Shown here piece by piece: positions 37,790 to 48,734 of a stretch of 64,000 nucleotides of DNA. A model generated the notes under the pieces. That model was given only the letters and a program-made list of their open reading frames with translations. It did no database searches and was not told the DNA's origin. Source of the DNA: Ruminococcus sp. GTDB lineage: Bacteria > Bacillota > Clostridia > Oscillospirales > Ruminococcaceae. Every line of letters starts with the position of its first letter. Within the stretch, counting starts at the first letter, position 1. The translations under genes were made by a program, and so were the position numbers. The stretch covers positions 1 to 64,000 of the forward strand of contig JAETQO010000005.1 in NCBI GenBank assembly GCA_021770655.1, read 5' to 3'.

Positions 37790-38032
37790 TTATTTTCCCT
37801 TTTCGTCATACGCTCTTATGGAAACTTGTCGTTTAGTATCAGGATTTGTGGAAATAACCTTATCTCCCGCCCTGATATTCTCTATTGCAACCATACCTGC
37901 TACAGTCATAACAAAAGTTACTGCAACGAAACATGACAGCTTAACTCCGGCTTTATTTGCCGCATTGTTAAAACCTTTATTCATTCCGCAGGTGAATATA
38001 ACATAGGGTCTACTATTATTTCTACATATCAT
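37790..38032 (-). pseudogene. Fragment of a pretoxin-HINT domain (polymorphic toxin remnant)
   Basis: 80 codons overlapping the end of the ABC exporter gene by 11 bp. LSCFVAVTFVMTVAGMVAIENIRAGDKVIST is split here as LSCFVAVTFVMT and GMVAIENIRAGDKVIST, matching the start of HINT (intein-like) autoprocessing domains that release C-terminal toxins (consensus CFVAGT, with Gly changed to Val here). It has neither the upstream toxin body nor the C-terminal half. Further short coding-like sequence continues leftward to about 37665 in another frame. A decayed toxin tail is the best reading. Confidence 0.55.
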
Positions 38033-40208
38033 TTACTTGCTGACGTTCAACAAGCTCCGCAAAAAATCCTTTTTTAGCGATCAGTTCGTCATATGTACCG
38101 TCCTCAATGATTTTTCCTTTATCGAGAACCACAATTCGGTCACACTGCTTTATCGTTGACAAGCGATGTGCGATCACTATTCTTGTACATTTCAGCTTAT
38201 CAAGGGAATCTGAAACGATTTTCTGCGTTATATTGTCAAGAGCCGAAGTCGCTTCGTCAAACATAAGAATTCTTGGCTTCGGTGCAACAGCCCTTGCTAT
38301 CATAAGACGCTGCCGCTGACCTCCGGAAATTCCGCCGCTGCCTTCTGAAATAATGGTGTTCATTCCCATTGGCATATTGCGAATATCCTCGTCAATGCCG
38401 GCGGTTTTTGCTGCTTCCCACGCCTGTTCCAATGTCAGGTCAGGCGCTGAAATTGTAATGTTGGAGAAAATATCGCCCTGAAACAGCTTGCTGTTCTGCA
38501 TAACAACTCCGATTTTCTTTCTAACCGATTTCAGATCAAGGGAAGAAAGGTCTTTACCGTCATAATATACAGAACCTTTCATCGGCTTTTCAAATCCAAG
38601 CATAATTCGCATAAGCGTTGATTTTCCGCAACCTGTGCTGCCGACTATTGCAACATACTGACCGGGACGTATTTTAAGCGACAGGTCGTCAATTACAAGC
38701 GGCATACTGTCGGAATATCTGAACGAAATATGATTAAGCTCAATTCCTCCCGAAAGCCTTGAAACAGTCTTCTTTGATTCTGCTATCTCAGGAACTGTTT
38801 CCATGATAGGCTTTGCCATATCAAGTATAGGCTTCACATTTGCCGCAGTGAGTGCAACGGAGGAAAGAACCGTAAACGCACCGCTGACCATTGCATAAGC
38901 CGAATTAAATGCCATATAATCAGCAACACTTACTCCGCTTTTTACCGCTGTCGAGTAGAGAAAGATATTTCCTATAAGGCTTATTGCTGTTGTTATCACC
39001 AAATTATACTTTATAATTGCAGGTGGCGAATATGTAAGCTCTGCACTTTTAGTATAGGTGTCTGACCACTTTGCAAAAATTCGTTTTTCTGCTCCTGCAA
39101 GCTTTATTTTTGTCACTCCCGAAACAATAGAGTAAACAAGTCCGTGTTCTTTAGCTTGAAGTTCCATTTTTTCTTTGCTTATTTTCATCTGAACAATGGA
39201 GGATACAACGGTAAAAGCAAAGGTTATCAAGGTTATCATCAGAGCAGGAAGAACAAGTGCTTTGGCATATTTGAATATCTGTCCTATGTACAAAAGCGAA
39301 AACAGTGAGCTTAGTCCCGCCGAGAACACAGCTTCTCCAATAAGTCCGCAAAGCGTTCCCAAGGACTGCATACGGCTGCCAATATCTCCGGAGCTGAATT
39401 TTTTAAAGAAATCCGACGGCAGAGTAAGTATTCTCATCATCGAAGCAGCTTCTACAGCTATATTCGTCTTTGTCTGCACCCGTCCGATCAGTATAGACTT
39501 AATAACGTTTGCCAATGAGCTTGAGATCGTAACTCCCGCAAGAAACATCATTGAAGATATCAGAAGCAACTTATCTGAAGAGACAACCACATTTGAGAAA
39601 ATGAGGTTATTTACCTTCGGCACAAGAAGTCCGATAACCGTCACTGCCAGCGTGATAAGAACAATTACAAATATATCCGAAAGAGATGGAATTTTTGCAA
39701 GGTACTTTATAAGCTCCTTTACATTCAGCCTTTGCAGCGGCAAAGGATTATAAAAACAGATCGCTTCCCTGCTAATGTTTTTCTCATTCTTCTTTGTGAT
39801 TTTTACATATTTGCCCTTTGAACGGTCAAGATATTTGTAGCTGCTTACTCCGCTCGGTACAAGAGCTACAATATCTCCCGATACCGTGCTGCCGATCATT
39901 ATTCCAATACCGTCTTTATACCATTTATCATGAAGAACAACATTTCTGTACATAATGCCGTGTGGTCGAAGCTGATATTCAAGCTGTTCGCTCATATCTT
40001 TTAACTGTACCGAAACCTCCTGCGGTTTAATGTGATAGTACCGCAAGATTTCTTCAATAGCGTTCTGCGACTGCTTCATTTTATTATTCATCTGCTCTGT
40101 TATAGCAGATTTACCCATAACAGAGCCTGCTATTTTTTCAAAGGCTTCGGAAAAGGCGTCGTTATCGCTTTTTATACGTTGCCTTATCTGTTCGTCAAAC
40201 CAACCCAT
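38022..40208 (-). CDS. NHLM-type bacteriocin ABC transporter, ATP-binding/permease protein
   Basis: 728 residues. An N-terminal ~170-residue domain (GWFDEQIRQRIKSD..., a degenerate peptidase-like part typical of the NHLM second ABC protein) is followed by six membrane helices and an ATPase domain with Walker A GSTGCGKST, signature SGGQRQR and Walker B ILMFDEATSALD. Partner of the C39 exporter 15 bp upstream; together they export leader-bearing peptides. Confidence 0.88.
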   Translation of the reverse strand: MGWFDEQIRQRIKSDNDAFSEAFEKIAGSVMGKSAITEQMNNKMKQSQNAIEEILRYYHIKPQEVSVQLKDMSEQLEYQLRPHGIMYRNVVLHDKWYKDGIGIMIGSTVSGDIVALVPSGVSSYKYLDRSKGKYVKITKKNEKNISREAICFYNPLPLQRLNVKELIKYLAKIPSLSDIFVIVLITLAVTVIGLLVPKVNNLIFSNVVVSSDKLLLISSMMFLAGVTISSSLANVIKSILIGRVQTKTNIAVEAASMMRILTLPSDFFKKFSSGDIGSRMQSLGTLCGLIGEAVFSAGLSSLFSLLYIGQIFKYAKALVLPALMITLITFAFTVVSSIVQMKISKEKMELQAKEHGLVYSIVSGVTKIKLAGAEKRIFAKWSDTYTKSAELTYSPPAIIKYNLVITTAISLIGNIFLYSTAVKSGVSVADYMAFNSAYAMVSGAFTVLSSVALTAANVKPILDMAKPIMETVPEIAESKKTVSRLSGGIELNHISFRYSDSMPLVIDDLSLKIRPGQYVAIVGSTGCGKSTLMRIMLGFEKPMKGSVYYDGKDLSSLDLKSVRKKIGVVMQNSKLFQGDIFSNITISAPDLTLEQAWEAAKTAGIDEDIRNMPMGMNTIISEGSGGISGGQRQRLMIARAVAPKPRILMFDEATSALDNITQKIVSDSLDKLKCTRIVIAHRLSTIKQCDRIVVLDKGKIIEDGTYDELIAKKGFFAELVERQQVNDM

Positions 40209-40223
40209 AGCACACGCACCTCC

Positions 40224-42407
40224 TTACTCGCTTGTTACAAGCTCGGCATATTTTCCGCCAAGCTTTATAAGCTCATCGTGCGTTCCACGTTCAACGACTT
40301 CTCCCTTATCAAGAACGATTATCTCATCACAGTCACGTATAGTTGAAAGACGGTGAGCAACAACGATCATAGTTATACCTCTGTCCTTTATTGAACGAAC
40401 AACATTATATTCGGTTCTTGCATCCAAAGCACTTGTCGCTTCATCAAGAATAACTATGGTCGGATCCTGCGCAAGAACTCTCGCTATTTCAAGTCTTTGC
40501 CGCTGTCCTCCCGAAAAATCGACTCCGCCCTCAAGCATTTTGTACTGATAACCGTTGTCACGTTCCATAATAACGTCGTGTATCTGTGCATCCCTTGCCG
40601 CCAATATCATTTCAAAATCCTCAATGGAATTGTCCCACATTTTAATATTGTTTGCAATAGTGTCCTCAAACAAAATAATATCCTGATCAACGACTGCAAG
40701 AGAGCCTGTGAATATATCGTGATTTACTGATTTTATAGGCTTGCCGTCAAAGAGTATCTCACCGCTCCACGGTTCATAAAGACCGGAGATAAGCTTGCTT
40801 ATGGTAGATTTTCCGCTGCCCGAACCTCCGACAAGTGCCACGCTTTTTCCAACATTAAGCTTAAGCGAAAAATCCTTTATCAAAGGCTCGGATAATCTGG
40901 AATAACCAAAGGTCACATTTTTTAGCTCCACATTGCCTGAAAGCTTATCATAAGAAATATCATCCGAAATATCTTCACTGCCGTACTCTACGTCTGTGGG
41001 ATATTTCATAATGTCTTCCACACGCTCCATATTTGTCCGCATTTCCTGTATAATCTGTCCTGCGTTCATCAAATTTTGTGCAGGAGCTGAAAAAGATGTC
41101 ATAAATCCCTGAAATGCAAGTATCATACCAACAGTAAATTCTCCCTGCATAGTCAGATATACTCCCGTTCCGAGAATAACTATGCTGCACAAAGAAGATA
41201 CCAATGAAGGAATAATTCCTAAATGATAGTCGATTTCTTTGAATTTGACTTTCCCGTTATTAACGGACGCCTGATAGCCGGCCCATTTTTGGAAAAATCC
41301 GTTTTCTGCTCCGCTTGCCTTTATAGTTTCAATCATTTCTATGCCGGAAAGCGTTGCCGAATCAAGCTTTGCACTATCCCTCATCTGAACTCTGCTTACG
41401 TTAATTCTTTTTTTGGAAATATAATAGCTTACAAAAATATTGATAACCATTGAAATCAAGCCTATTGCCGTTAATAACAGACTGTATCTGAGCATAACCG
41501 CAAGATAGAACACCAGCATAGCTGTGTCAAGAACCAGTGGAGCAAGAGTATTTATCAGTGTTGAAGCTATACCTTGATTTATCCTTTGTCTGCCTGCAAT
41601 ATCTCCTGCCGCACGCTGAGAATAAAATTCAAGCGGCAGACGGAGAATATGCCACATAAATTTGCTGTCGGCAACAACAGCAAATTTGCCCTGTACTTTA
41701 AGCAAATATGATGCTTTTATCCAGCAAACCGCTATCTGTATAACTGCCGCAGCTGCAAGAGCAATAGTAAAGGGATAGAACCAATCGGGATTTTGCCCTG
41801 TGAGCAGTCTGTCCATAAACATTCTTGAAAATGCAGGATTTACAATGGAAATAAGCGATGAAATGAGCGTTGTGATTATTATCATCGCAAATGCAGATCC
41901 TGTGCCTTTCAGACGCTCCTTTGCAAAGGACATTACACTCTTGGGCACACCGCCGGGCGTGAAATTTTCCGAAGGTTCGATCATCAGACAGATACCTGTG
42001 AACGATTCGTCAAATTCCTCCATTGATATACATACATCACCTCTTGCGGGATCGTTTATGTAAACCTTGTTTCCCTTGAAACCGTCAAGCACAACAAAAT
42101 GATTGAAATTCCAATGGATTATACAAGGAAATTTGCCTTTTTCTTTAAGCTGAGTCGGCTCATAACGGTAGCCTTTAGCTGTAAAACCATAGTTTCTTGC
42201 CGCTTTTAAAATATTTTTTGCATTTGAACCGTCACGGGATACACCGCAATCTTTTCTGATTTGCTCCAAAGGAATCCATAGTCCATAATATGCCGATATC
42301 ATTGTAAGACAAGCTGCACCGCATTCCAATGCTTCCATCTGCATTATAACAGGAACCTTTGCCCTTCCTTTTGTGATCGGTTTTTCATTATATTTCTTAT
42401 TACTCAT
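40224..42407 (-). CDS. Peptidase-containing ABC exporter (C39, NHLM type)
   Basis: 727 residues. The N-terminal C39 protease has Cys in ECGAACL, His in HWNFNHFVV and Asp in NDPARG, so it should cut after double-glycine leaders. Membrane domain in the middle; ATPase with GGSGSGKST, SGGQRQR and IVILDEATSALD. Matching Gly-Gly leaders occur in the two small peptides of the same cluster. Confidence 0.93.
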   Translation of the reverse strand: MSNKKYNEKPITKGRAKVPVIMQMEALECGAACLTMISAYYGLWIPLEQIRKDCGVSRDGSNAKNILKAARNYGFTAKGYRYEPTQLKEKGKFPCIIHWNFNHFVVLDGFKGNKVYINDPARGDVCISMEEFDESFTGICLMIEPSENFTPGGVPKSVMSFAKERLKGTGSAFAMIIITTLISSLISIVNPAFSRMFMDRLLTGQNPDWFYPFTIALAAAAVIQIAVCWIKASYLLKVQGKFAVVADSKFMWHILRLPLEFYSQRAAGDIAGRQRINQGIASTLINTLAPLVLDTAMLVFYLAVMLRYSLLLTAIGLISMVINIFVSYYISKKRINVSRVQMRDSAKLDSATLSGIEMIETIKASGAENGFFQKWAGYQASVNNGKVKFKEIDYHLGIIPSLVSSLCSIVILGTGVYLTMQGEFTVGMILAFQGFMTSFSAPAQNLMNAGQIIQEMRTNMERVEDIMKYPTDVEYGSEDISDDISYDKLSGNVELKNVTFGYSRLSEPLIKDFSLKLNVGKSVALVGGSGSGKSTISKLISGLYEPWSGEILFDGKPIKSVNHDIFTGSLAVVDQDIILFEDTIANNIKMWDNSIEDFEMILAARDAQIHDVIMERDNGYQYKMLEGGVDFSGGQRQRLEIARVLAQDPTIVILDEATSALDARTEYNVVRSIKDRGITMIVVAHRLSTIRDCDEIIVLDKGEVVERGTHDELIKLGGKYAELVTSE

Positions 42408-42417
42408 AATTCATCAC

Positions 42418-42837
42418 TTAGTTCACAATAAAATAAAAAGGATTGATGCTTTCTTCAACTATTTCTATCTTATAATTTCCGTCCGAAAGTTCTGTACTTT
42501 CGATCTTTATGACGGAATTTCCGTCTGTATCGATTTCAACGGCAGATATATTTCCAATTTTTTCTCCGTTGACCCTTACTTCCATACCGCTTTCAAATTC
42601 GCAGTTTTCATTGGCTGTCACAACAGCAGACAGCTCTCCGTTTCGGACTGTTCCGTTTGCCGCTGCAACATTTTCAAGTCTGCCGAATAATCCCCATAGG
42701 CAAAAGCCTGCCGTTAGAACGATTATCGTAATGAGAACAAGCCATATGCTTGGTCTTGATACTTTTATGTAGCCGTCAAGTTCCTCTGGCGAAGAAATCC
42801 TTTTTAAGCTCTTTTGCCGAAATATTTCGTCTGCCAT
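42418..42837 (-). CDS. NHLM-type HlyD-like secretion protein (short form)
   Basis: 139 residues. EIFRQKSLKRISSPEEL followed by one membrane helix and a small extracytoplasmic beta domain matches the start of NHLM secretion proteins, but it lacks the long coiled-coil of full HlyD. AGGAGG precedes the ATG. It likely bridges the ABC proteins across the envelope. Confidence 0.75.
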   Translation of the reverse strand: MADEIFRQKSLKRISSPEELDGYIKVSRPSIWLVLITIIVLTAGFCLWGLFGRLENVAAANGTVRNGELSAVVTANENCEFESGMEVRVNGEKIGNISAVEIDTDGNSVIKIESTELSDGNYKIEIVEESINPFYFIVN

Positions 42838-42867
42838 AAAACCAAACCTCCTATTTTATGCTGAATA

Positions 42868-42981
42868 TCAACACCGTGAATCTATATTTTCTATGCTCGC
42901 AGGTAGTGCACCGCCACTTACTTGCTCCAGATCTTCGTCGGTCAGCAGTTTCTGCTCATCCAGCTGCTCATATGGTTTCAT
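42868..42981 (-). CDS. Short double-glycine leader peptide (candidate second RiPP precursor)
   Basis: 37 codons, too short for usual ORF calling. The leader has LTDEDLEQVSGG, the Gly-Gly signal for C39 exporters, then a 13-residue core ALPASIENIDSRC. The best-placed start is an ATG at 43003-43005, six bases after AAGGAG, but its next codon is TAA (43000-43002); the frame is open again from codon 3. The listed start is the next in-frame ATG, with only a weak purine-rich site upstream. Either the gene is inactivated by a codon-2 nonsense change (CAA to TAA would explain it) or it uses the internal start. Confidence 0.6.
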   Translation of the reverse strand: MKPYEQLDEQKLLTDEDLEQVSGGALPASIENIDSRC

Positions 42982-43090
42982 TTGTTCTTTCTCATTGGAT
43001 TACATAGGTTATTCTCCTTAAAATATCTTTTTGTTTTGCCGTTCCGAAAAGGTGTGCGTTCTTTGTATGCTTAAACTTACACTCACCGTT

Positions 43091-43831
43091 TCATCGTGCC
43101 GTCAAACCGCCGTCAATAGCAAAGGTCTGACCTGTAATATATTCAGCTTTATTGCTTGCGAGAAATACACAAAGCTCGGCTACCTCTTTTGCTTTTCCGA
43201 AGCGCTTCACCGGAATTTGCTCCTTGAACATACTAAGCTTTTTTTCATCAATATCCGCTAACATTTCCGTATCGATATAACCGGGAGCAACAACGTTCAC
43301 TCGGATGTTTTTTGAAGCCAGCTCCAAAGCTGCCGTTTTGGAAAGAGCGATTACCCCCGATTTTGAAGCACAGTAACCGCTCTGACCTTCGCCGCCCCTC
43401 ATTCCATACACAGAGCTTACGTTGACAATTGCTCCGCCTTTGTTTGCTGCCATAGGAACAATCACAGCTTTCATAGTATGAAAAACCGATGTGAGATTTG
43501 TGGAGATAGTATCTTCCCATATATCGGAACTCATCGAATAAAGCAGCCCCGGCTTGCTTATTCCTGCGGCATTTATCAGAATATCAATTCCGCCCAGCTC
43601 CATTATAGCACTTTTCAAAGCAGGAATAATGCTCTCTCTTTCGGAAAGATTTAATTCAAAGGGAGTAAATTTTCCGTTTGTTTTCTCGGACAGGCTGCAA
43701 AGCTTGTCCTTGCCGTTTCTGTAAGAACCGTAAACCTTTGCACCCTCATCAATACATTCTTCTGCACAAGCATAGCCAATACCGCCCGAAGCTCCAATGA
43801 TTACTGCCTTTTTTCCGTCAAGCAGTCCCAT
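43091..43831 (-). CDS. 3-oxoacyl-ACP reductase-like short-chain dehydrogenase
   Basis: 246 residues from MGLLDGKKAV after GGAGGTGGTATA. Rossmann loop IGASGGIGYA, NAAG, catalytic Ser in NVSSVYG and YCASK supply the SDR active site; the C-terminal GQTFAIDGG is FabG-like. Start overlaps the stop of the ketosynthase-like gene in TAATG. In this operon it would reduce the beta-ketone on the ACP. Confidence 0.88.
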   Translation of the reverse strand: MGLLDGKKAVIIGASGGIGYACAEECIDEGAKVYGSYRNGKDKLCSLSEKTNGKFTPFELNLSERESIIPALKSAIMELGGIDILINAAGISKPGLLYSMSSDIWEDTISTNLTSVFHTMKAVIVPMAANKGGAIVNVSSVYGMRGGEGQSGYCASKSGVIALSKTAALELASKNIRVNVVAPGYIDTEMLADIDEKKLSMFKEQIPVKRFGKAKEVAELCVFLASNKAEYITGQTFAIDGGLTAR

Positions 43832-44865
43832 TATACCACCTCCAGAAGCGCGCATAAATAATTTCCTGCCATATCAACACCTGTTACCGCTATGCACTTT
43901 ATCGGAAAACTTAACATTTCGGAGGATAAAGGCAATTTCTGTTTCCTCAATACGGCGGCGGCTAATGATATGTTCATCATATATCCGCTTCCAAGTGTTT
44001 CACCGAACAGCTTCTTCGGTGAATAGAATATGCTTTGGGGGAAAATTTTGCTAAGTGTTTCCTGTTCAATGCTGTCAAAATATGTTCCGTTCGCACAGGT
44101 AAATACAATATCGGGAGAATCGGTTCCAAGCTGCTTTATTGCTGAGCTTATCACTTCTTCTGCTTCCTCTGCCGACATCTCATGCAGATATGGACATTCT
44201 TCAAAGGAGCTTGAACCGAATGTCGCCGCTTTACAGTATGTTCTGTCGCTTTTTTCAGCAGAAACAGTTAAAACAGCAGCTCCTTCCGAAATTTCACAGC
44301 CCTGTGCCGCTGCGCTGAGCATTATGGAGTCGACAAGCTCATTGAAATATTCCTCGACCGAGCCGCAAAGTATTGTATCCGCTTTACCCGAATTAAGAAG
44401 CATTGCAGCGTATTCCAGCGGATCGCCGCCCATAAGAAGCGTACTTACACCTTTATATCCGCCGATAATACATATCTGACCGACACACGAATTGGGGACC
44501 GTACCCGCAAAAACAGCAGGACTGCACAGGGCAGGCTCACCCTTTACAACGGAATCCGCAAATTTTGTATTGCTCTCCGCTGCTCCGAAGCCTGTTGAGA
44601 TTATTGTGCCGATACGAAGCTTATCACTTTCCGATGTGATATTTCCATCCTCCGCCGCTCTTGCTGCCGTTTCCGCAGCCAGCTTTGTATATCCGCTGCA
44701 TCTGCGGAGCTTAGCGGAAGGCACAACAGGAGTATAATCAGCCTTACCTGTCTTATGCAATTCATATGACTCGTCTTTATTTAATAGAGCCGACAATTCA
44801 TCTGCCGAACAAGCACACCTTGAAATAATACCTATTCCGTCAATATAAACGGGATTCATACTCAT
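43831..44865 (-). CDS. Ketosynthase-like protein without catalytic residues (chain-length-factor-like)
   Basis: 344 residues, thiolase fold, clearly related to KAS II but shorter. At the catalytic Cys position (TACASG) it reads STLLMGG; the first His motif (NAHGT) reads CANGTYFD; the second (GHxxGAAG) reads GETLGSGYM. All three catalytic residues are therefore gone, as in the KS-beta partners of type II PKS. The start overlaps the intact ketosynthase by 4 bp (ATGA), so the pair is made in equal amounts and probably forms a heterodimer. Confidence 0.8.
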   Translation of the reverse strand: MSMNPVYIDGIGIISRCACSADELSALLNKDESYELHKTGKADYTPVVPSAKLRRCSGYTKLAAETAARAAEDGNITSESDKLRIGTIISTGFGAAESNTKFADSVVKGEPALCSPAVFAGTVPNSCVGQICIIGGYKGVSTLLMGGDPLEYAAMLLNSGKADTILCGSVEEYFNELVDSIMLSAAAQGCEISEGAAVLTVSAEKSDRTYCKAATFGSSSFEECPYLHEMSAEEAEEVISSAIKQLGTDSPDIVFTCANGTYFDSIEQETLSKIFPQSIFYSPKKLFGETLGSGYMMNISLAAAVLRKQKLPLSSEMLSFPIKCIAVTGVDMAGNYLCALLEVV

Positions 44866-46040
44866 TCGCCCTCCTCATAACTCTTTATCAACAGACTTGC
44901 ACTGTTTCCTGCAAATGCAAAGCTGTTTGACAAAGCATATTTTATATCAATATCCTTTGTTGACGATGAAATGAAGATTTTTTTATCGTCGGTTATGGGA
45001 GAACTGAGCCTTGGCATTGGTATGTACTTCCCGTTTATCATTGACATTATAGTGCTTGCAAGCTCGATCGCACCCGAAGCACCCATACAATGACCAAGAA
45101 TAGCTTTTGTTGATGAAAGAGCAGGAATCTTATCGGTATTCTCAAAAAGCCTTTCGATAGCTTTGACCTCCATTGAATCGTTGATAACCGTTCCCGTTCC
45201 GTGACCGTTTATGTAATCAACCATATCGGCTGATATTTTCCCGTCCGCCAATGCCATAAGCATTGTATTGTATGCTCCGCTGCCTTCGGGATCTGGGCTT
45301 GTGGCGTGATATGCGTCATTCCCGAGACCGTATCCTGCAATTTCACAGTAAATGCGGGCGTTTCTTTCCCGAGCGTGTTCAAGCTCCTCCACAAGGAAAT
45401 ACGCACCGCATTCTCCTATATTTATTCCGTCCCTGTTTTCATCATAGGGATTGCATACGCATGAACTGAGTGATTTAAGCGAATTGAAGCCGTAAGCCGC
45501 CGTGATTGTAAGAGGGTCTGCTCCGCCCATAACAACCATATCGCATACGCCGTTTCTGATATAGTCAAACGCCATACCTGCTGCAGAAGCTCCCGAAGCA
45601 CAGGCTGCCGATGAAACCGATACGCTGCCCTTTACTCCGAATATCTTTTTTGTATATGAGATATAATCGTTCATTGAAGCAAGAGAACCGCTGTTTGAAA
45701 TGCCCTCGGATTTTTCTGCGCTGTGCTTATACGCATTATCCGTCGTTGACAAAAGCGTACCTATACAAAGCCTGCATCGTCCTCCGGCTGCGGAAATATA
45801 TCGGGTATCAACGCCTGCATCCGCAAGCATTTCGACAGATGACAGACGAATAAGCTCATAAAGCCTGTTTTCCTCCGAAAGCTCGCACTCACCGAAACGG
45901 TCTGTCAATAGTCCGTCTGTATTAAATGCTGTACATTTTTTTATACCCGATATTCCATTGGTACAAGTCTCAAAAAGCTGTTCTTTACCCGACGCATTGC
46001 CGGCAACAGCACCTATACCGGTAATAACTGCTCTCTTCAT
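44862..46040 (-). CDS. Beta-ketoacyl-ACP synthase (KAS II/FabF-like, catalytic)
   Basis: 392 residues. Intact C-H-H triad: SSAACASGASAAG (Cys), INGHGTGT (His) and ILGHCMGASG (His), plus PDPEGSGAY and the C-terminal NSFAFAGNSA. Condenses malonyl-ACP with an acyl chain. Starts 4 bp after the ACP stop and overlaps the KS-beta-like gene; it is the catalytic half of the pair. Confidence 0.93.
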   Translation of the reverse strand: MKRAVITGIGAVAGNASGKEQLFETCTNGISGIKKCTAFNTDGLLTDRFGECELSEENRLYELIRLSSVEMLADAGVDTRYISAAGGRCRLCIGTLLSTTDNAYKHSAEKSEGISNSGSLASMNDYISYTKKIFGVKGSVSVSSAACASGASAAGMAFDYIRNGVCDMVVMGGADPLTITAAYGFNSLKSLSSCVCNPYDENRDGINIGECGAYFLVEELEHARERNARIYCEIAGYGLGNDAYHATSPDPEGSGAYNTMLMALADGKISADMVDYINGHGTGTVINDSMEVKAIERLFENTDKIPALSSTKAILGHCMGASGAIELASTIMSMINGKYIPMPRLSSPITDDKKIFISSSTKDIDIKYALSNSFAFAGNSASLLIKSYEEGE

Positions 46041-46044
46041 AATA

Positions 46045-46323
46045 TTATCCTATATGCTTTCTTATATAATCGGCTATCATATTTACGGTAAGAAGATTTT
46101 TGGCTTCTTCGGGAGGAATATCAATCCCCCACGTTTCATAAATAGTTACAATAAGCTCCAGCGTGTCCAGAGAGTCAAGTCCCATACAAACGCCCTCGGT
46201 GGTGCGGTCAAAGGTAAAAATAGGCGAATCAAAGGTGAAGCCCTCAATATCCGACTCGGAAATATCCATTTTTTCCAGAAGCTTTTCATATATCTTGTTT
46301 TCAAGATTTTCGAGATTTTCCAT
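46045..46323 (-). CDS. Acyl carrier protein
   Basis: 92 residues; the ATG at 46323 is 9 bp after AAAGG, a better fit than the one three codons earlier. Four-helix carrier fold with GLDSLDTLEL, whose Ser carries phosphopantetheine. Larger than the usual ~77-residue FabC-type ACP, and set between the precursor peptide and the ketosynthase, so it is probably dedicated to this cluster. Confidence 0.9.
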   Translation of the reverse strand: MENLENLENKIYEKLLEKMDISESDIEGFTFDSPIFTFDRTTEGVCMGLDSLDTLELIVTIYETWGIDIPPEEAKNLLTVNMIADYIRKHIG

Positions 46324-46357
46324 ATAAAACATCCTTTATATTTTTTTACTGTTGTAA

Positions 46358-46402
46358 AAAATGCACACGAGCGGTCCGGCACGTCATTCCCGTGTGCATT
46401 TT
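46358..46402 (-). terminator. Terminator-like hairpin between precursor and biosynthesis genes
   Basis: AAAATGCACACG and CGTGTGCATTTT form a perfect 12-bp stem; in the leftward direction it ends in six T. Its place just after the precursor gene fits partial termination that makes more precursor than enzyme mRNA. Confidence 0.75.
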
Positions 46403-46449
46403 GATTTCAATTTACCCGATATAATTTCATTATCAAGCAAACAATACAA

Positions 46450-46770
46450 TTACATCTTCTTACTTTTATCATGAAGATAAATTTCCGGATCATCATGTTC
46501 CGGATCATAAGGATCATAAATATAATAGCGGCTTCCTCCCGAAACCTTATCCAGCTCATCATCGGAAATTTCTTCGCCTTCTCCTGCGAAATATGACTTT
46601 GCTTCGTCAAGAGTGATCGCAAAGCCAAGCTTCTCTGCTATCTTGCCAATCTTAAGAAGCTCCTCATCGCTGAGTTCACTGATATTCTTGCCGCCGATAA
46701 CCGCTTCAAGCTCTGCCTTTGCCGACTCGTCTGCCATTGCCTTGGTATAAAATTCTGCAATTTTGTTCAT
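46450..46770 (-). CDS. Nif11-family RiPP precursor peptide
   Basis: 106 residues from the ATG after GGAGGTTTTTCTT. Residues 1-79 form a Nif11-type leader: MNKIAEFYTKAMADESAK, LSDEELLKIGKIAEKLGF, then DDELDKVSGG, with the Gly-Gly export/cleavage site. The 27-residue core starts SRYYIYDPYDPEH and ends HDKSKKM; it is rich in Tyr, Asp and Pro, lacks Cys, and has three Lys near its C-terminus. No lanthipeptide, YcaO or radical SAM enzyme is nearby; the only tailoring candidate is the GNAT, so lysine or N-terminal acylation is the likely modification. Confidence 0.85.
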   Translation of the reverse strand: MNKIAEFYTKAMADESAKAELEAVIGGKNISELSDEELLKIGKIAEKLGFAITLDEAKSYFAGEGEEISDDELDKVSGGSRYYIYDPYDPEHDDPEIYLHDKSKKM

Positions 46771-46846
46771 AAGAAAAACCTCCAAATAAAAATTTTTATA
46801 TTAACTTGTGCAGATGTTTTCCGCACAAATAATACTCGCTGTTGTT

Positions 46847-47152
46847 TTATTCAAAACAAACATACGATTCAGAATGATTGTGGTGCGAAGTAATTCTGTC
46901 AAGAATCTTTTTTCGAAATGCATTTGCATGCTCGTTATCCGAATCTATTGAATAATATGCTCTTTTGACATTAAACCTTTTCAGATTTTCCATCGCCTTT
47001 GCATATGGAAGGAATATCACGCCCGTACCCCGGTATTTCTCTGCTGCGGAATTCTGTTCAAAGATCACATACCCCGATTTAAAAGAGCGCACAAGGCAAT
47101 ATGCTGCCAGATGACCGTCCTTTTCTGCAATAAAGCTCATATCGGGATTCAT
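46847..47152 (-). CDS. GNAT acyltransferase, C-terminal half (split gene)
   Basis: 101 codons forming the second GNAT-like domain (FIAEKDGHLAAYCLV, EKYRGTGVIFLPYA). It overlaps the N-terminal half by 4 bp in a different frame. If one copy of the 17-bp tandem repeat at 47171-47204 is removed, the two halves join as one 295-residue protein, passing through PRQYFDNKYKNMNPDMSF. Separate translation from its own ATG through ATGA coupling is possible but lacks a good ribosome site. Confidence 0.7.
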   Translation of the reverse strand: MNPDMSFIAEKDGHLAAYCLVRSFKSGYVIFEQNSAAEKYRGTGVIFLPYAKAMENLKRFNVKRAYYSIDSDNEHANAFRKKILDRITSHHNHSESYVCFE

Positions 47153-47751
47153 ATTCTTGTATTTATTATCAAAATACTGCCGTGGATAAAATACTGCCGT
47201 GGATAAAGATGATTTTTAAACTCATTTTCATGAGAATGATAAAGCTCGTCCAGAAGCTCGGGGGAGGATTCGGAAAACAAGCGGCATACAAAGCCCTGCC
47301 GTTCAAGCATTTCGGTCAGCTTATGCCCTTTTTCATGCATATACCTTTCCCACTCGGCATAGCCGTTTTCATCGCACTCATACATTTCACAGGACTCTTC
47401 ACATTTAAATCCCAGTTTTTTCAGAGCCGCGCTTACAAAGCCGTACGATTTTGCTTTTACAGACATAACGCATATTACAGGCAGTATCTTATTATCCTTA
47501 AAGTACTGCATAAGCTCCGTAAAAATACCGGTATCCCGCTTGTTTTCGACAGTGTAAGCGTATAAAACATTATAATGTTCCAAAAAACGCTCATAGCAAA
47601 GAAATCCTGCTGCCGCTGCGTCCTCATACAGAATAAGAATTTTTCCGCCGCCTTCCAAAGCTCTTTTCACACTTCCGTCCGTTTGTGCATTTCTGCACAT
47701 TCCAAACAGAAATATGTAATCAATATAAGAAGCTTCTTTTATTTCACGCAT
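47149..47751 (-). CDS. GNAT acyltransferase, N-terminal part (split gene)
   Basis: 200 codons. Contains one complete GNAT-like domain (ILYEDAAAAGFLCYE, AYTVENKRDTGIFTELM, ALKKLGFKCEES) and the start of a second; the last ten residues or so are frame-shifted sequence created by a 17-bp tandem duplication. First gene of the cluster and the presumed enzyme joining the acyl chain to the Nif11 peptide, by analogy with goadvionin and selidamide GNATs. Confidence 0.75.
   Translation of the reverse strand: MREIKEASYIDYIFLFGMCRNAQTDGSVKRALEGGGKILILYEDAAAAGFLCYERFLEHYNVLYAYTVENKRDTGIFTELMQYFKDNKILPVICVMSVKAKSYGFVSAALKKLGFKCEESCEMYECDENGYAEWERYMHEKGHKLTEMLERQGFVCRLFSESSPELLDELYHSHENEFKNHLYPRQYFIHGSILIINTRI
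47171..47204. repeat. Perfect 17-bp tandem duplication splitting the GNAT gene
   Basis: AAAATACTGCCGTGGAT occurs twice head to tail (47171-47187 and 47188-47204). 17 is not a multiple of 3, so the duplication shifts the reading frame. Slippage could add or remove a copy. Confidence 0.95.
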
Positions 47752-48080
47752 AATTATTCACTCTTTCATTTCAAAAATCAAACAACGGAACAACTGCCTT
47801 TCCCGCTCTGCTTTATTTTATACAACGCCGAGTTAGCACTTTTTACAAGCTGACATAATCATTTATTCCCGAACCGACCATTGCCGCACCTATGCCGGAG
47901 GATAAATGCTTATACGGATATTCCTTTCCAAAATATCCTTCTATATCTTAACATTACTGCTTCCTATTTTTTTCTTGTCATATAGGCTATCACATACGAA
48001 ATATATCGGAGTGATTACCCTTAGGAAAATTCATCTTTTTATAAAAATTGGAAAATACAATGTTACATATTCCATAATAT
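47752..48080 (-). other. Long untranslated leader of the lipopeptide cluster
   Basis: About 330 bp between promoter and first gene. A stretch at 47843-47947 has a coding-like frame without a start (GKEYPYKHLSSGIGAAMVG, then NDYVSL-stop), possibly the remains of another small peptide gene. Nothing else is supported. Confidence 0.4.
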
Positions 48081-48109
48081 AGAATACCACATTTCGCCCG
48101 GGACGTCAA
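48081..48109 (-). promoter_or_regulatory. Promoter of the acyl-peptide cluster
   Basis: Reverse strand TTGACG (48104-48109) and TATTCT (48081-48086) with a 17-bp spacer; the only good promoter before the leftward genes. Confidence 0.6.
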
Positions 48110-48137: not shown

Positions 48138-48734
48138 ACATCACTTTCGCAAACCCTGCGTTTGCCCTACAAAACAGCCTGGTTTGTGCTTCAAAGACTG
48201 AGAAGTGCAATGTCAAACCGTGAAAACAAGTACATTTTAGAAGGCATTGTTGAGCTTGATGATACCTACATCGGCTCATCGGATCACGGCAAAAAGCGTG
48301 GACGGGGTACAAGCAAGATGAAAATAATGGTTGCTGTCTCCAAAACAGCAAATGGTGCTCCAAAGTTTGTGAAAATGAAGGTTTTGCCTAATCTTAAAGG
48401 CGTTACGATCGGCAAATTCGCCAAGCATAATATTGCTCAGGACAGCATTATCGAAAGTGATAATTACAGTTCTTATCAAAAGCCGTTGGCAGATAAATAC
48501 TTCCACAAATACGAAACATTTGCAGCAGATAAGAAAATGCTGGTATGGGTTCACACTTTGATTTCCAATATGAAAGCCTTTATCGGAGGAACTTATCACG
48601 GCATTGAAAGAACTTATATGCAGCTGTATCTTGACGAGTTCGGCTTTAGATTCAACCGCCGAAATTTCAATGAAAATCTCTTTGAAAGGCTGGCTTTGGC
48701 TGCTGTTAACTGTCATTGGATTCGTGATGAGTAA
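48138..48734 (+). mobile_element. Truncated IS1595-family transposase (ISXO2-like domain)
   Basis: About 190 residues from a TTG, with coding-like sequence slightly further upstream. LPYKTAWFVLQRLRSAM, EGIVELDDTYIG and IIESDNYSSY are the ISXO2-like DDE motifs. The N-terminal zinc ribbon is missing, so it is a remnant. It separates the lipopeptide cluster promoter from the following accessory genes. Confidence 0.8.

What the first reader, a model, noticed from the sequence alone, without database searches (positions are those of the whole stretch)
37790..48109. Type II PKS/FAS-RiPP hybrid cluster with GNAT transferase and NHLM export
One leftward transcription unit joins a Nif11-leader precursor, a double-GNAT acyltransferase, an ACP, a ketosynthase with a dead partner, a ketoreductase, an HlyD-like protein and two NHLM ABC exporters, one with a C39 protease. 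Known acylated RiPPs (goadvionins, selidamides, lipolanthines) use GNAT transferases or modular/iterative synthases; a discrete KS-alpha/KS-beta/KR/ACP set dedicated to a Nif11 peptide in a gut or rumen Firmicute is not something I know. Inferred product: a ribosomal peptide carrying a beta-hydroxy or longer acyl chain, cleaved at Gly-Gly on export. No acyltransferase, dehydratase, enoyl reductase or phosphopantetheinyl transferase is in the cluster, so these would come from primary fatty-acid synthesis.
Basis: partly seen in the sequence, partly recalled or inferred. Interest (0 to 1): 0.9.

Follow-up and report, generated by a model that had tools for sequence, protein, structure and literature searches.

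The report
Peptide cluster with its own acyl-chain factory
A gut-type bacterium carries a gene cluster that appears to build a short fatty chain and attach it to a ribosome-made peptide before export; a related bacterium has it with every gene open, while the copy read here looks damaged.

Summary
The observation largely holds. Minus strand, 47751-38022: tandem GNAT, Nif11-like double-glycine precursor, ACP, active ketosynthase (KSa), degenerate ketosynthase (KSb), ketoreductase, short HlyD-like protein, two NHLM exporters, one with C39. Co-location is not chance: KSb orthologues lie beside KSa in four further genomes, two genera. G238 has the full set with every gene open; G825 has it with one stop in ABC2; the G823 contig is cut; G808 is a reduced, odd copy. 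Between G823 and G825, KSa, KSb and KR show dN/dS about 0.1. Lys follows the Gly-Gly site in 7 of 9 Nif11-like cores of KS clusters, 7 of 7 of GNAT-LanM clusters and 0 of 9 controls; the tandem GNAT NpuN acylates exactly that Lys. Best reading: a selidamide-like lipopeptide whose acyl chain comes from a dedicated KSa/KSb/KR/ACP set. Each half has precedent (selidamides, goadvionins, lipoavitides), so: new variant of a known kind. Product, chain and acylation site are inferred; the window's own core has Ser, not Lys.

The parts
47149..47751 (-). GNAT, N-terminal part (200 aa), cut short by a frameshift
   Evidence: 32% identical to the GNAT of G238; matched at E 3.7e-28
47171..47207 (-). exact 17-bp tandem duplication that shifts the GNAT frame
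46847..47152 (-). GNAT, C-terminal part (101 aa), starts inside an ATGA overlap with the first part
   Evidence: PF00583 22.6 bits, cut-off 20.7; 46% identical to the GNAT of G238
46450..46770 (-). precursor A: Nif11-like leader ending VSGG, then core SRYYIYDPYDPEHDDPEIYLHDKSKKM
   Evidence: 47% identical to the G238 precursor
46358..46402 (-). hairpin (14-bp stem) with U-run between precursor A and ACP: possible attenuator
   Evidence: fold -21.1 kcal/mol, z -2.86, 3 of 200 shuffles as good; not listed by the simple terminator scan, whose loops are at most 8
46045..46332 (-). acyl carrier protein, GLDSLDTL motif
   Evidence: PF00550 28.5 bits, cut-off 20.8; motif
44862..46040 (-). KSa, ketosynthase with catalytic Cys-His-His
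   Evidence: PF02801 102.5 bits and PF00109 74.1 bits; motifs; 67% identical to G238, 69% to G823
43831..44865 (-). KSb, degenerate ketosynthase partner without Cys, HGTGT or GH
   Evidence: PF00109 20.1 bits, just under the cut-off 20.8; TIGR03150 53.7 bits, cut-off 493.75
43091..43855 (-). SDR ketoreductase (FabG-like), GASGGIG and YxxxK
   Evidence: PF13561 212.8 bits; TIGR01830 251.2 bits, under its cut-off 297.75; motifs
42868..43005 (-). precursor B: small double-glycine leader peptide, core ALPASIENIDSRC; stop at codon 2 of the SD-positioned start, internal ATG at 42981
   Evidence: read directly; found by the GG scan
42418..42837 (-). short HlyD-like NHLM membrane protein (139 aa)
   Evidence: TIGR03794 positions 1-56 of 421, E 1.4e-8, under cut-off
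40224..42407 (-). NHLM ABC1: C39 peptidase, permease, ATPase
   Evidence: TIGR03796 over cut-off; PF03412 130.6 bits
38022..40208 (-). NHLM ABC2: permease and ATPase
   Evidence: TIGR03797 over cut-off
48162..48734 (+). IS1595-type transposase next to the upstream end of the cluster (boundary, not part)
   Evidence: PF12762 94.6 bits

Best explanation
An acylated-RiPP cluster of selidamide-like logic with its own acyl supply. KSa, with KSb as non-catalytic partner, extends an acyl group on the dedicated ACP by one or a few C2 units; KR reduces the beta-keto group, so a 3-hydroxyacyl-ACP is the simplest product (malonyl-ACP, ACP priming and any dehydration or enoyl reduction borrowed from primary fatty-acid synthesis). 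The tandem GNAT transfers that acyl group to the Nif11-like precursor, in several relatives probably onto the side chain of the Lys that directly follows Gly-Gly. The NHLM exporter removes the leader at Gly-Gly with its C39 domain and secretes the lipopeptide. Shown here: gene content, its recurrence, kept or lost catalytic residues, purifying selection, the Lys1 pattern. Inferred: KSa/KSb pairing, chain length, acyl-ACP as GNAT donor, acylation site. In the window the GNAT is split, precursor B has an early stop and core A begins with Ser, so this copy is probably decaying or altered.
For: KSb orthologues in 5 genomes of two genera, all next to KSa. ACP-KSa-KSb-KR with GNAT and NHLM ABC1/ABC2 on one contig in window, G238 and G825; the NHLM genes of G238 and G825 pass TIGR03796/TIGR03797 cut-offs. 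Six Nif11-like precursors behind the KS genes in G823. dN/dS 0.092 (KSa), 0.098 (KSb), 0.108 (KR) between G823 and G825. Lys1 in 7 of 9 Nif11-like cores of KS clusters and 7 of 7 cores of GNAT-LanM clusters, against 0 of 9 family controls (Fisher p 2.7e-5 for 14/16 against 0/9; 1.1e-4 if the one GGG-K core is not counted as Lys1). NpuN, a tandem GNAT, acylates Lys1 of the Nif11 precursor NpuA and Lys3 or Lys24 cannot substitute (PMC13060382, section 9 and passages). Phaeornamide carries 3-hydroxydecanoate (PMC9505594, passages). A KS with a partner lacking functional motifs (AmcF-AmcG) does a single C2 extension on an ACP (PMC10698177, passages).
Against: No product is known. Lys1 fails in 2 of 9 KS-cluster Nif11-like cores (window Ser1, G825 Thr1, the latter with an open GNAT), and the two other double-glycine peptides of KS clusters (window B, G808 candidate) also lack it: 7 of 11 in all. 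Six of the seven Lys1 cores come from G823, whose contig starts in the ACP, so its GNAT was not seen; by cluster, Lys1 holds in 2 of 4 KS clusters with Nif11-like precursors; the 7 LanM cores come from two similar clusters and the 9 controls from 5 genomes. Two of the 9 controls have a Lys within the first three core residues. The G825 GNAT had no Pfam match at E 0.01; it is 51% identical to that of G238. G825 has an in-frame stop near the start of ABC2, G808 lacks ACP, KR and NHLM genes on the held contig and the first 40 residues of KSa, so only G238 is open throughout. Structure models of GNAT and KSb were poor (mean pLDDT 46.6 and 43.2).
Confidence: 0.63

Rival explanations
1. GNAT loads or primes the ACP, as GNAT domains of some polyketide synthases do (recalled), and the KSa/KSb/KR/ACP product is a separate small molecule; the peptide and exporter are merely adjacent.
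For: No acyltransferase for ACP loading was recognised in the cluster (ten proteins scanned). ACP directly follows GNAT in G238 and G825.
Against: The same tandem-GNAT family sits with LanM and Nif11-like precursors in G333 and G775, where no homologue of the KS, KR or ACP was found on the held stretches at E 1e-4, so its constant partner is the peptide. Lys1 pattern.
Confidence: 0.13
2. The GNAT takes ordinary fatty acyl-CoA/ACP or acetyl-CoA from primary metabolism, and KSa/KSb/KR/ACP do something else for the peptide, for example make another substituent or adjust the host's acyl pool.
For: Known selidamide GNATs take acyl groups from primary metabolism (PMC9505594 passages; PMC13060382). 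GNAT-LanM clusters here lack KS genes.
Against: KSa, KSb, KR and ACP are kept together beside GNAT and peptide in two genera (window, G238, G825) and KSa, KSb and KR are under purifying selection.
Confidence: 0.16
3. Chance neighbourhood of an exporter/bacteriocin locus and a fatty-acid locus.
For: Precursor leader is under the Nif11 cut-offs; the window copy is damaged and has a mobile element beside it; G808 has KSa/KSb without exporter or ACP on its contig.
Against: Same neighbourhood in G238 and G825, and in the part of it that the G823 contig holds.
Confidence: 0.03
4. In this genome the cluster is a dead remnant with no product, whatever its relatives make.
For: GNAT frameshift, precursor B stop at codon 2, IS1595 transposase at the upstream side, HINT fragment at the other. 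Core A has no Lys1.
Against: KSa, KSb, KR, ACP, both ABC genes and precursor A are open and keep their motifs. The GNAT halves overlap at ATGA and could be translated as two polypeptides. This reading concerns only the window and is compatible with the best explanation for the relatives.
Confidence: 0.5

Closest known systems
Selidamides, nostolysamide type (NpuA/NpuM/NpuN)
   Same: Tandem GNAT, Nif11-type leader with Gly-Gly, Lys directly after Gly-Gly in several relatives, C39 exporter (PMC13060382, passages and sections 9 and 11).
   Different: Here no LanM and a dedicated KSa/KSb/KR/ACP set; known selidamides take acyl groups from primary metabolism. Window core A has Ser1.
Lipoavitides (non-modular FAS plus acyltransferase LpvE)
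   Same: Discrete fatty-acid enzymes dedicated to a ribosomal peptide (title seen; LpvE named; further content recalled, paper not held).
   Different: Recalled: class III lanthipeptides of actinomycetes, KAS III condensation, N-terminal acylation. Here FabF-type KSa with degenerate KSb, Nif11-like leader, NHLM export, a Ruminococcus relative.
Goadvionins and other lipolanthines
   Same: Ribosomal peptide joined to a polyketide or fatty chain (PMC10435860 and PMC9505594 passages).
   Different: Those are class III lanthipeptides with avionin and, as recalled, larger multidomain synthases; no lanthionine synthetase is among the ten proteins scanned here.
AmcF-AmcG of cispentacin biosynthesis
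   Same: Active KS paired with a partner that lacks functional motifs, acting on a dedicated ACP, with FabI presumably recruited from fatty-acid synthesis (PMC10698177 passages).
   Different: No peptide there; KSa and KSb match the AmcF/AmcG models only far below their cut-offs (190.8 of 325; 20.7 of 80).
NHLM/NHLP bacteriocin export systems
   Same: ABC1 with C39, ABC2, Gly-Gly leader.
   Different: HlyD-like subunit is only 139 aa in the window; 305 aa in G238 and 303 aa in G825, both over the TIGR03794 cut-off.

Membership tests
NHLM/NHLP export system | ABC1 with C39 peptidase and ABC2 over curated cut-offs | tested here: met
   TIGR03796 947.6 (cut-off 853.3) and TIGR03797 722.3 (709.4) in the window; also met in G238 and G825
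NHLM/NHLP export system | HlyD-like adaptor over cut-off (TIGR03794) | tested here: not met
   34.1 (cut-off 156.2) in the window; G238 157.1, G825 164.9
Nif11-leader RiPP precursors | TIGR03798 / PF07862 over curated cut-off | tested here: not met
   20.8 (32.3) and 14.5 (23.8) in the window; G238 29.0 (32.3). Called Nif11-like for that reason
Nif11-leader RiPP precursors | double-glycine cleavage signal | tested here: met
   TIGR01847 22.2 (15.7)
Selidamides (GNAT-acylated RiPPs) | tandem GNAT encoded beside a Nif11/NHLP-type precursor | tested here: met
   Open in G238 and G825; split in the window. In G238 only the N-terminal half passes a Pfam GNAT cut-off, in the window only the C-terminal half, in G825 neither; the tandem nature rests on the alignment
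Selidamides (GNAT-acylated RiPPs) | acyl group on a Lys or Orn side chain of the product | not testable with these tools
   No product known; Lys1 pattern is indirect
Selidamides (GNAT-acylated RiPPs) | Lys at core position 1 (nostolysamide type) | tested here: inconclusive
   7 of 9 KS-cluster Nif11-like cores, not the window's
Type II PKS (KS-CLF-ACP) | active KS plus partner without catalytic Cys plus discrete ACP | tested here: met
   5 of 5 for KSa/KSb motifs; ACP motif in 3 of 3 examined; G808 has no ACP on its held contig
Type II PKS (KS-CLF-ACP) | partner groups with known CLFs; KS with known KSa | tested here: inconclusive
   26-row tree: KSa and KSb each their own 100/100 clade on long branches; KSa falls with the fused N-halves only at 87/90. 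No characterised KS-CLF was in the tree
Type II PKS (KS-CLF-ACP) | KSa/KSb heterodimer | not testable with these tools
   KSb model too poor
Cispentacin AmcF-AmcG | NF058662 and NF058659 over cut-off | tested here: not met
   190.8 of 325; 20.7 of 80
Lanthipeptides, incl. lipolanthines and lipoavitides | lanthionine synthetase in the cluster | tested here: not met
   none among the 10 window proteins scanned

The most novel reading that the evidence does not exclude
KSa with KSb is a new type II-like pair that, like AmcF-AmcG, performs one set C2 extension on its own ACP; with KR it makes one defined 3-hydroxyacyl group, which a selidamide-type tandem GNAT takes directly from that ACP onto Lys1 of Nif11-like peptides. 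It would be a plug-in acyl-tailoring module for ribosomal peptides in gut Firmicutes.
Probability: 0.35. Interest if true: 0.75.

Novelty: new variant of a known kind. Interest (0 to 1): 0.6.

Why it matters
If true, a ribosomal peptide pathway carries its own small acyl factory, so the lipid on the peptide would be set by the cluster and not by the cell's general fatty acids. That gives a compact set (precursor, GNAT, ACP, KSa, KSb, KR) for making lipopeptides of defined chain, and a natural comparison within one bacterial family: the same GNAT family with LanM and no KS, against GNAT with KS. It also makes the role of degenerate KS partners testable on a peptide read-out.

Tried and rejected
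Chance co-location: rejected (recurrence). GNAT as ACP loader: kept as rival, made less likely by GNAT-LanM clusters in which no KS, KR or ACP homologue was found on the held stretches. Structure prediction of GNAT and KSb: run, too poor for pockets or pairing; Foldseek on the GNAT model found ordinary GNATs at E about 1e-4, which confirms the superfamily only. Plasmid search with KSb: 18 records, all Streptomyces, all under 60% identity; with KSa: 1025 records, all under 60% identity, FabF and other KS. Viral contigs: no relative. Genome contigs: one relative, the record of G238 (two narrow patterns). Rfam: nothing over gathering in the window. PADLOC: nothing for four proteins.

Papers: ten searches. 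In the rows shown (for example 30 of 111, 30 of 55, 20 of 30, 15 of 99; titles and starts of abstracts only) I saw no description of a KS/KR/ACP set with a Nif11 precursor. The library lacks most subscription papers; the PNAS 2022 selidamide and Nat. Chem. 2024 lipoavitide papers were not held.

Controls and dropped rows: the Lys1 control had 23 loci; the final pattern kept 9 distinct peptides from 5 genomes. An earlier, looser pattern gave 14 frames, three of which look spurious (L055, L064, L077); none of the 14 had Lys at position 1. Where a third Gly follows Gly-Gly the final pattern counted from the residue after it: one LanM-cluster core (GGG-K) and two controls. By their numbers the control genomes belong to the family draw in which the GNAT was found in 4 of 396; this is inferred from handles.


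Full report
What is there. The minus strand from 47751 to 38022 holds, in order, a GNAT split in two frames, a double-glycine precursor with a Nif11-like leader, an ACP, KSa, KSb, a ketoreductase, a second small double-glycine peptide, a short HlyD-like protein, and NHLM ABC1 (with C39) and ABC2. The finding's low end, 37790-38032, is a pretoxin-HINT fragment and its high end lies just before an IS1595-type transposase; neither belongs to the cluster. The genome has one other ketosynthase over the Pfam PF00109 cut-off, of FabF type, on another contig.

Is it more than chance? KSb was used as the most specific probe. In 396 genomes of the family, 18 matched at E 1e-6 or better, but only the window genome and G238 (E 1.4e-101, 53% identity) are orthologues; ten others are parts of 749-800-aa frames and six are other matches. 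A draw of 394 genomes of the order gave only the window. The 29 genomes held of the window's genus gave 2 (window, G808) and the 21 of G238's genus gave 3 (G238, G823, G825). A draw of 218 relatives of G238 added none; these draws overlap. So five orthologues in two genera: rare, but repeated.

The relatives. G238 (its contig of 42,737 bases fits JAMPDU010000009.1, Ruminococcus sp. MAG) carries HlyD, ABC1, ABC2, GNAT in one frame (295 aa), ACP, KSa, KSb, KR, a DUF2807 protein, a Nif11-like precursor and two radical SAM proteins. G825 has the same order with an open GNAT (298 aa), a DUF7005 protein before it, one precursor and a radical SAM gene; its ABC2 has one in-frame stop near the start. 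The G823 contig starts within the ACP and goes KSa, KSb, KR, DUF2807, then six Nif11-like precursors. G808 is the odd one: KSa without its first 40 residues, KSb, and a GNAT N-terminal domain running into a SPASM fragment; a double-glycine candidate upstream was seen by eye only; no ACP, KR or NHLM homologue lies on the 11.5 kb held. No radical SAM protein is among the ten window proteins scanned. In G238 and G825 a tyrosine integrase (41% identical to each other) lies upstream, so the cluster may move.

Are the enzymes working genes? KSa keeps Cys, HGTGT and GH in 5 of 5; KSb has none of them in 5 of 5; the ACP motif is present in 3 of 3 and KR motifs in the three sequences read in the right frame (the G238 KR was read out of frame there, but its motifs are visible). 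Between G823 and G825, dN/dS is 0.092 for KSa, 0.098 for KSb and 0.108 for KR, so the degenerate KSb is kept as a protein.

The GNAT and its target. In the family draw the GNAT occurs in 4 of 396 genomes: window, G238, G333 and G362, in G333's genus in 2 of 43, and in a class draw of 341 only in the window. In G333 and G775 it sits with a LanM synthetase and Nif11-like precursors, in G333 also with NHLM ABC1/ABC2 over cut-off; no KS, KR or ACP homologue was found on those stretches. So the constant partner of the GNAT is the peptide. In Nif11-like cores of KS clusters Lys directly follows Gly-Gly in 7 of 9, in GNAT-LanM clusters in 7 of 7, in family controls 0 of 9. Fisher p is 2.7e-5 for 14/16 against 0/9, 0.0023 for 7/9, 0.0047 for 7/11 with the two other double-glycine peptides, and 1.1e-4 if the GGG-K core is not counted. 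These peptides are not independent: six of the seven KS-cluster cases come from G823, whose GNAT lies off the contig, and by cluster Lys1 holds in 2 of 4. NpuN of Nostoc is a tandem GNAT that acylates Lys1, and not Lys3 or Lys24, of a Nif11 precursor with a Gly-Gly site (PMC13060382: passages, sections 9 and 11). This is the strongest hint to mechanism, and the window peptide (Ser1) and that of G825 (Thr1) are exceptions to it.

The acyl part. KSa, KSb, KR and ACP without dehydratase or enoyl reductase point to a 3-hydroxyacyl group or to borrowing from primary metabolism. Phaeornamide, a selidamide, carries 3-hydroxydecanoate from primary metabolism (PMC9505594 passages). AmcF-AmcG, a KS with a partner lacking functional motifs, makes a single C2 extension on an ACP, and FabI presumably comes from fatty-acid synthesis (PMC10698177 passages). 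A tree of 26 ketosynthase rows puts KSa and KSb each in its own fully supported clade on long branches; no characterised KS-CLF was among the rows, so calling KSb a chain length factor goes beyond the evidence.

State of the window copy. The GNAT frame is shifted by an exact 17-bp tandem duplication, precursor B has a stop right after its SD-positioned start, and core A lacks Lys1. The cluster here is probably decaying; the halves of the GNAT overlap at ATGA, so a split enzyme is not excluded. A hairpin with a U-run behind precursor A would favour precursor over enzyme expression.

Known or new. Each half has precedent: tandem-GNAT selidamides, goadvionins and lipolanthines (polyketide or fatty acid with a ribosomal peptide), and lipoavitides with a non-modular fatty acid synthase (title; details recalled). 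A KSa/KSb/KR/ACP set with a Nif11-like precursor, tandem GNAT and NHLM export was not seen in the rows shown by the ten paper searches listed under Tried and rejected. Hence a new variant of a known kind.

Noticed in passing
L025:9443-11683, L026:2104-4500, L027:8831-11185: Fused KS-KSb-like proteins of about 750-800 aa in several genomes of the family; ten such frames were matched, three neighbourhoods were read. In L026 the neighbours are a patatin, a PlsC-type acyltransferase, an ACP, a FabG-like reductase and a FabA/FabZ-type dehydratase. A Priestia megaterium plasmid has a similar fused gene with fabG, fabZ and an ACP. Product unknown to me.
   Followed up: partly
L038:8656-10509: In G333 a Nif11-like leader fragment, an AMP-binding ligase frame (PF00501, 163.9 bits) and a GNAT piece lie in a row beside broken LanM-like pieces: possibly another acyl source for the same GNAT family.
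   Followed up: partly
L049:3783-5920: Six Nif11-like precursors in tandem behind the KS genes of G823; each core has a single Cys, in five of six followed by x-x-Gly; sister clusters have radical SAM genes.
   Followed up: partly
L048:10625-11489 and L036:2401-3745: GNAT domains running into or overlapping a radical SAM/SPASM gene in G808 and G362; the two share 77% identity over 257 bases in the SPASM part. Real fusion, decay or assembly error not settled.
   Followed up: partly
L023:3329-4447 and L050:13289-14392: Tyrosine integrases at the same side of two KS clusters, suggesting that the cluster is carried on mobile DNA.
   Followed up: partly
window 37790-38032: Fragment of a pretoxin-HINT domain next to the cluster's end, remnant of an unrelated gene.
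   Followed up: no
L050:5794-6651: DUF7005 protein of unknown function (PF22541, 179.2 bits) between ABC2 and GNAT in G825; no such gene at that place in G238.
   Followed up: no
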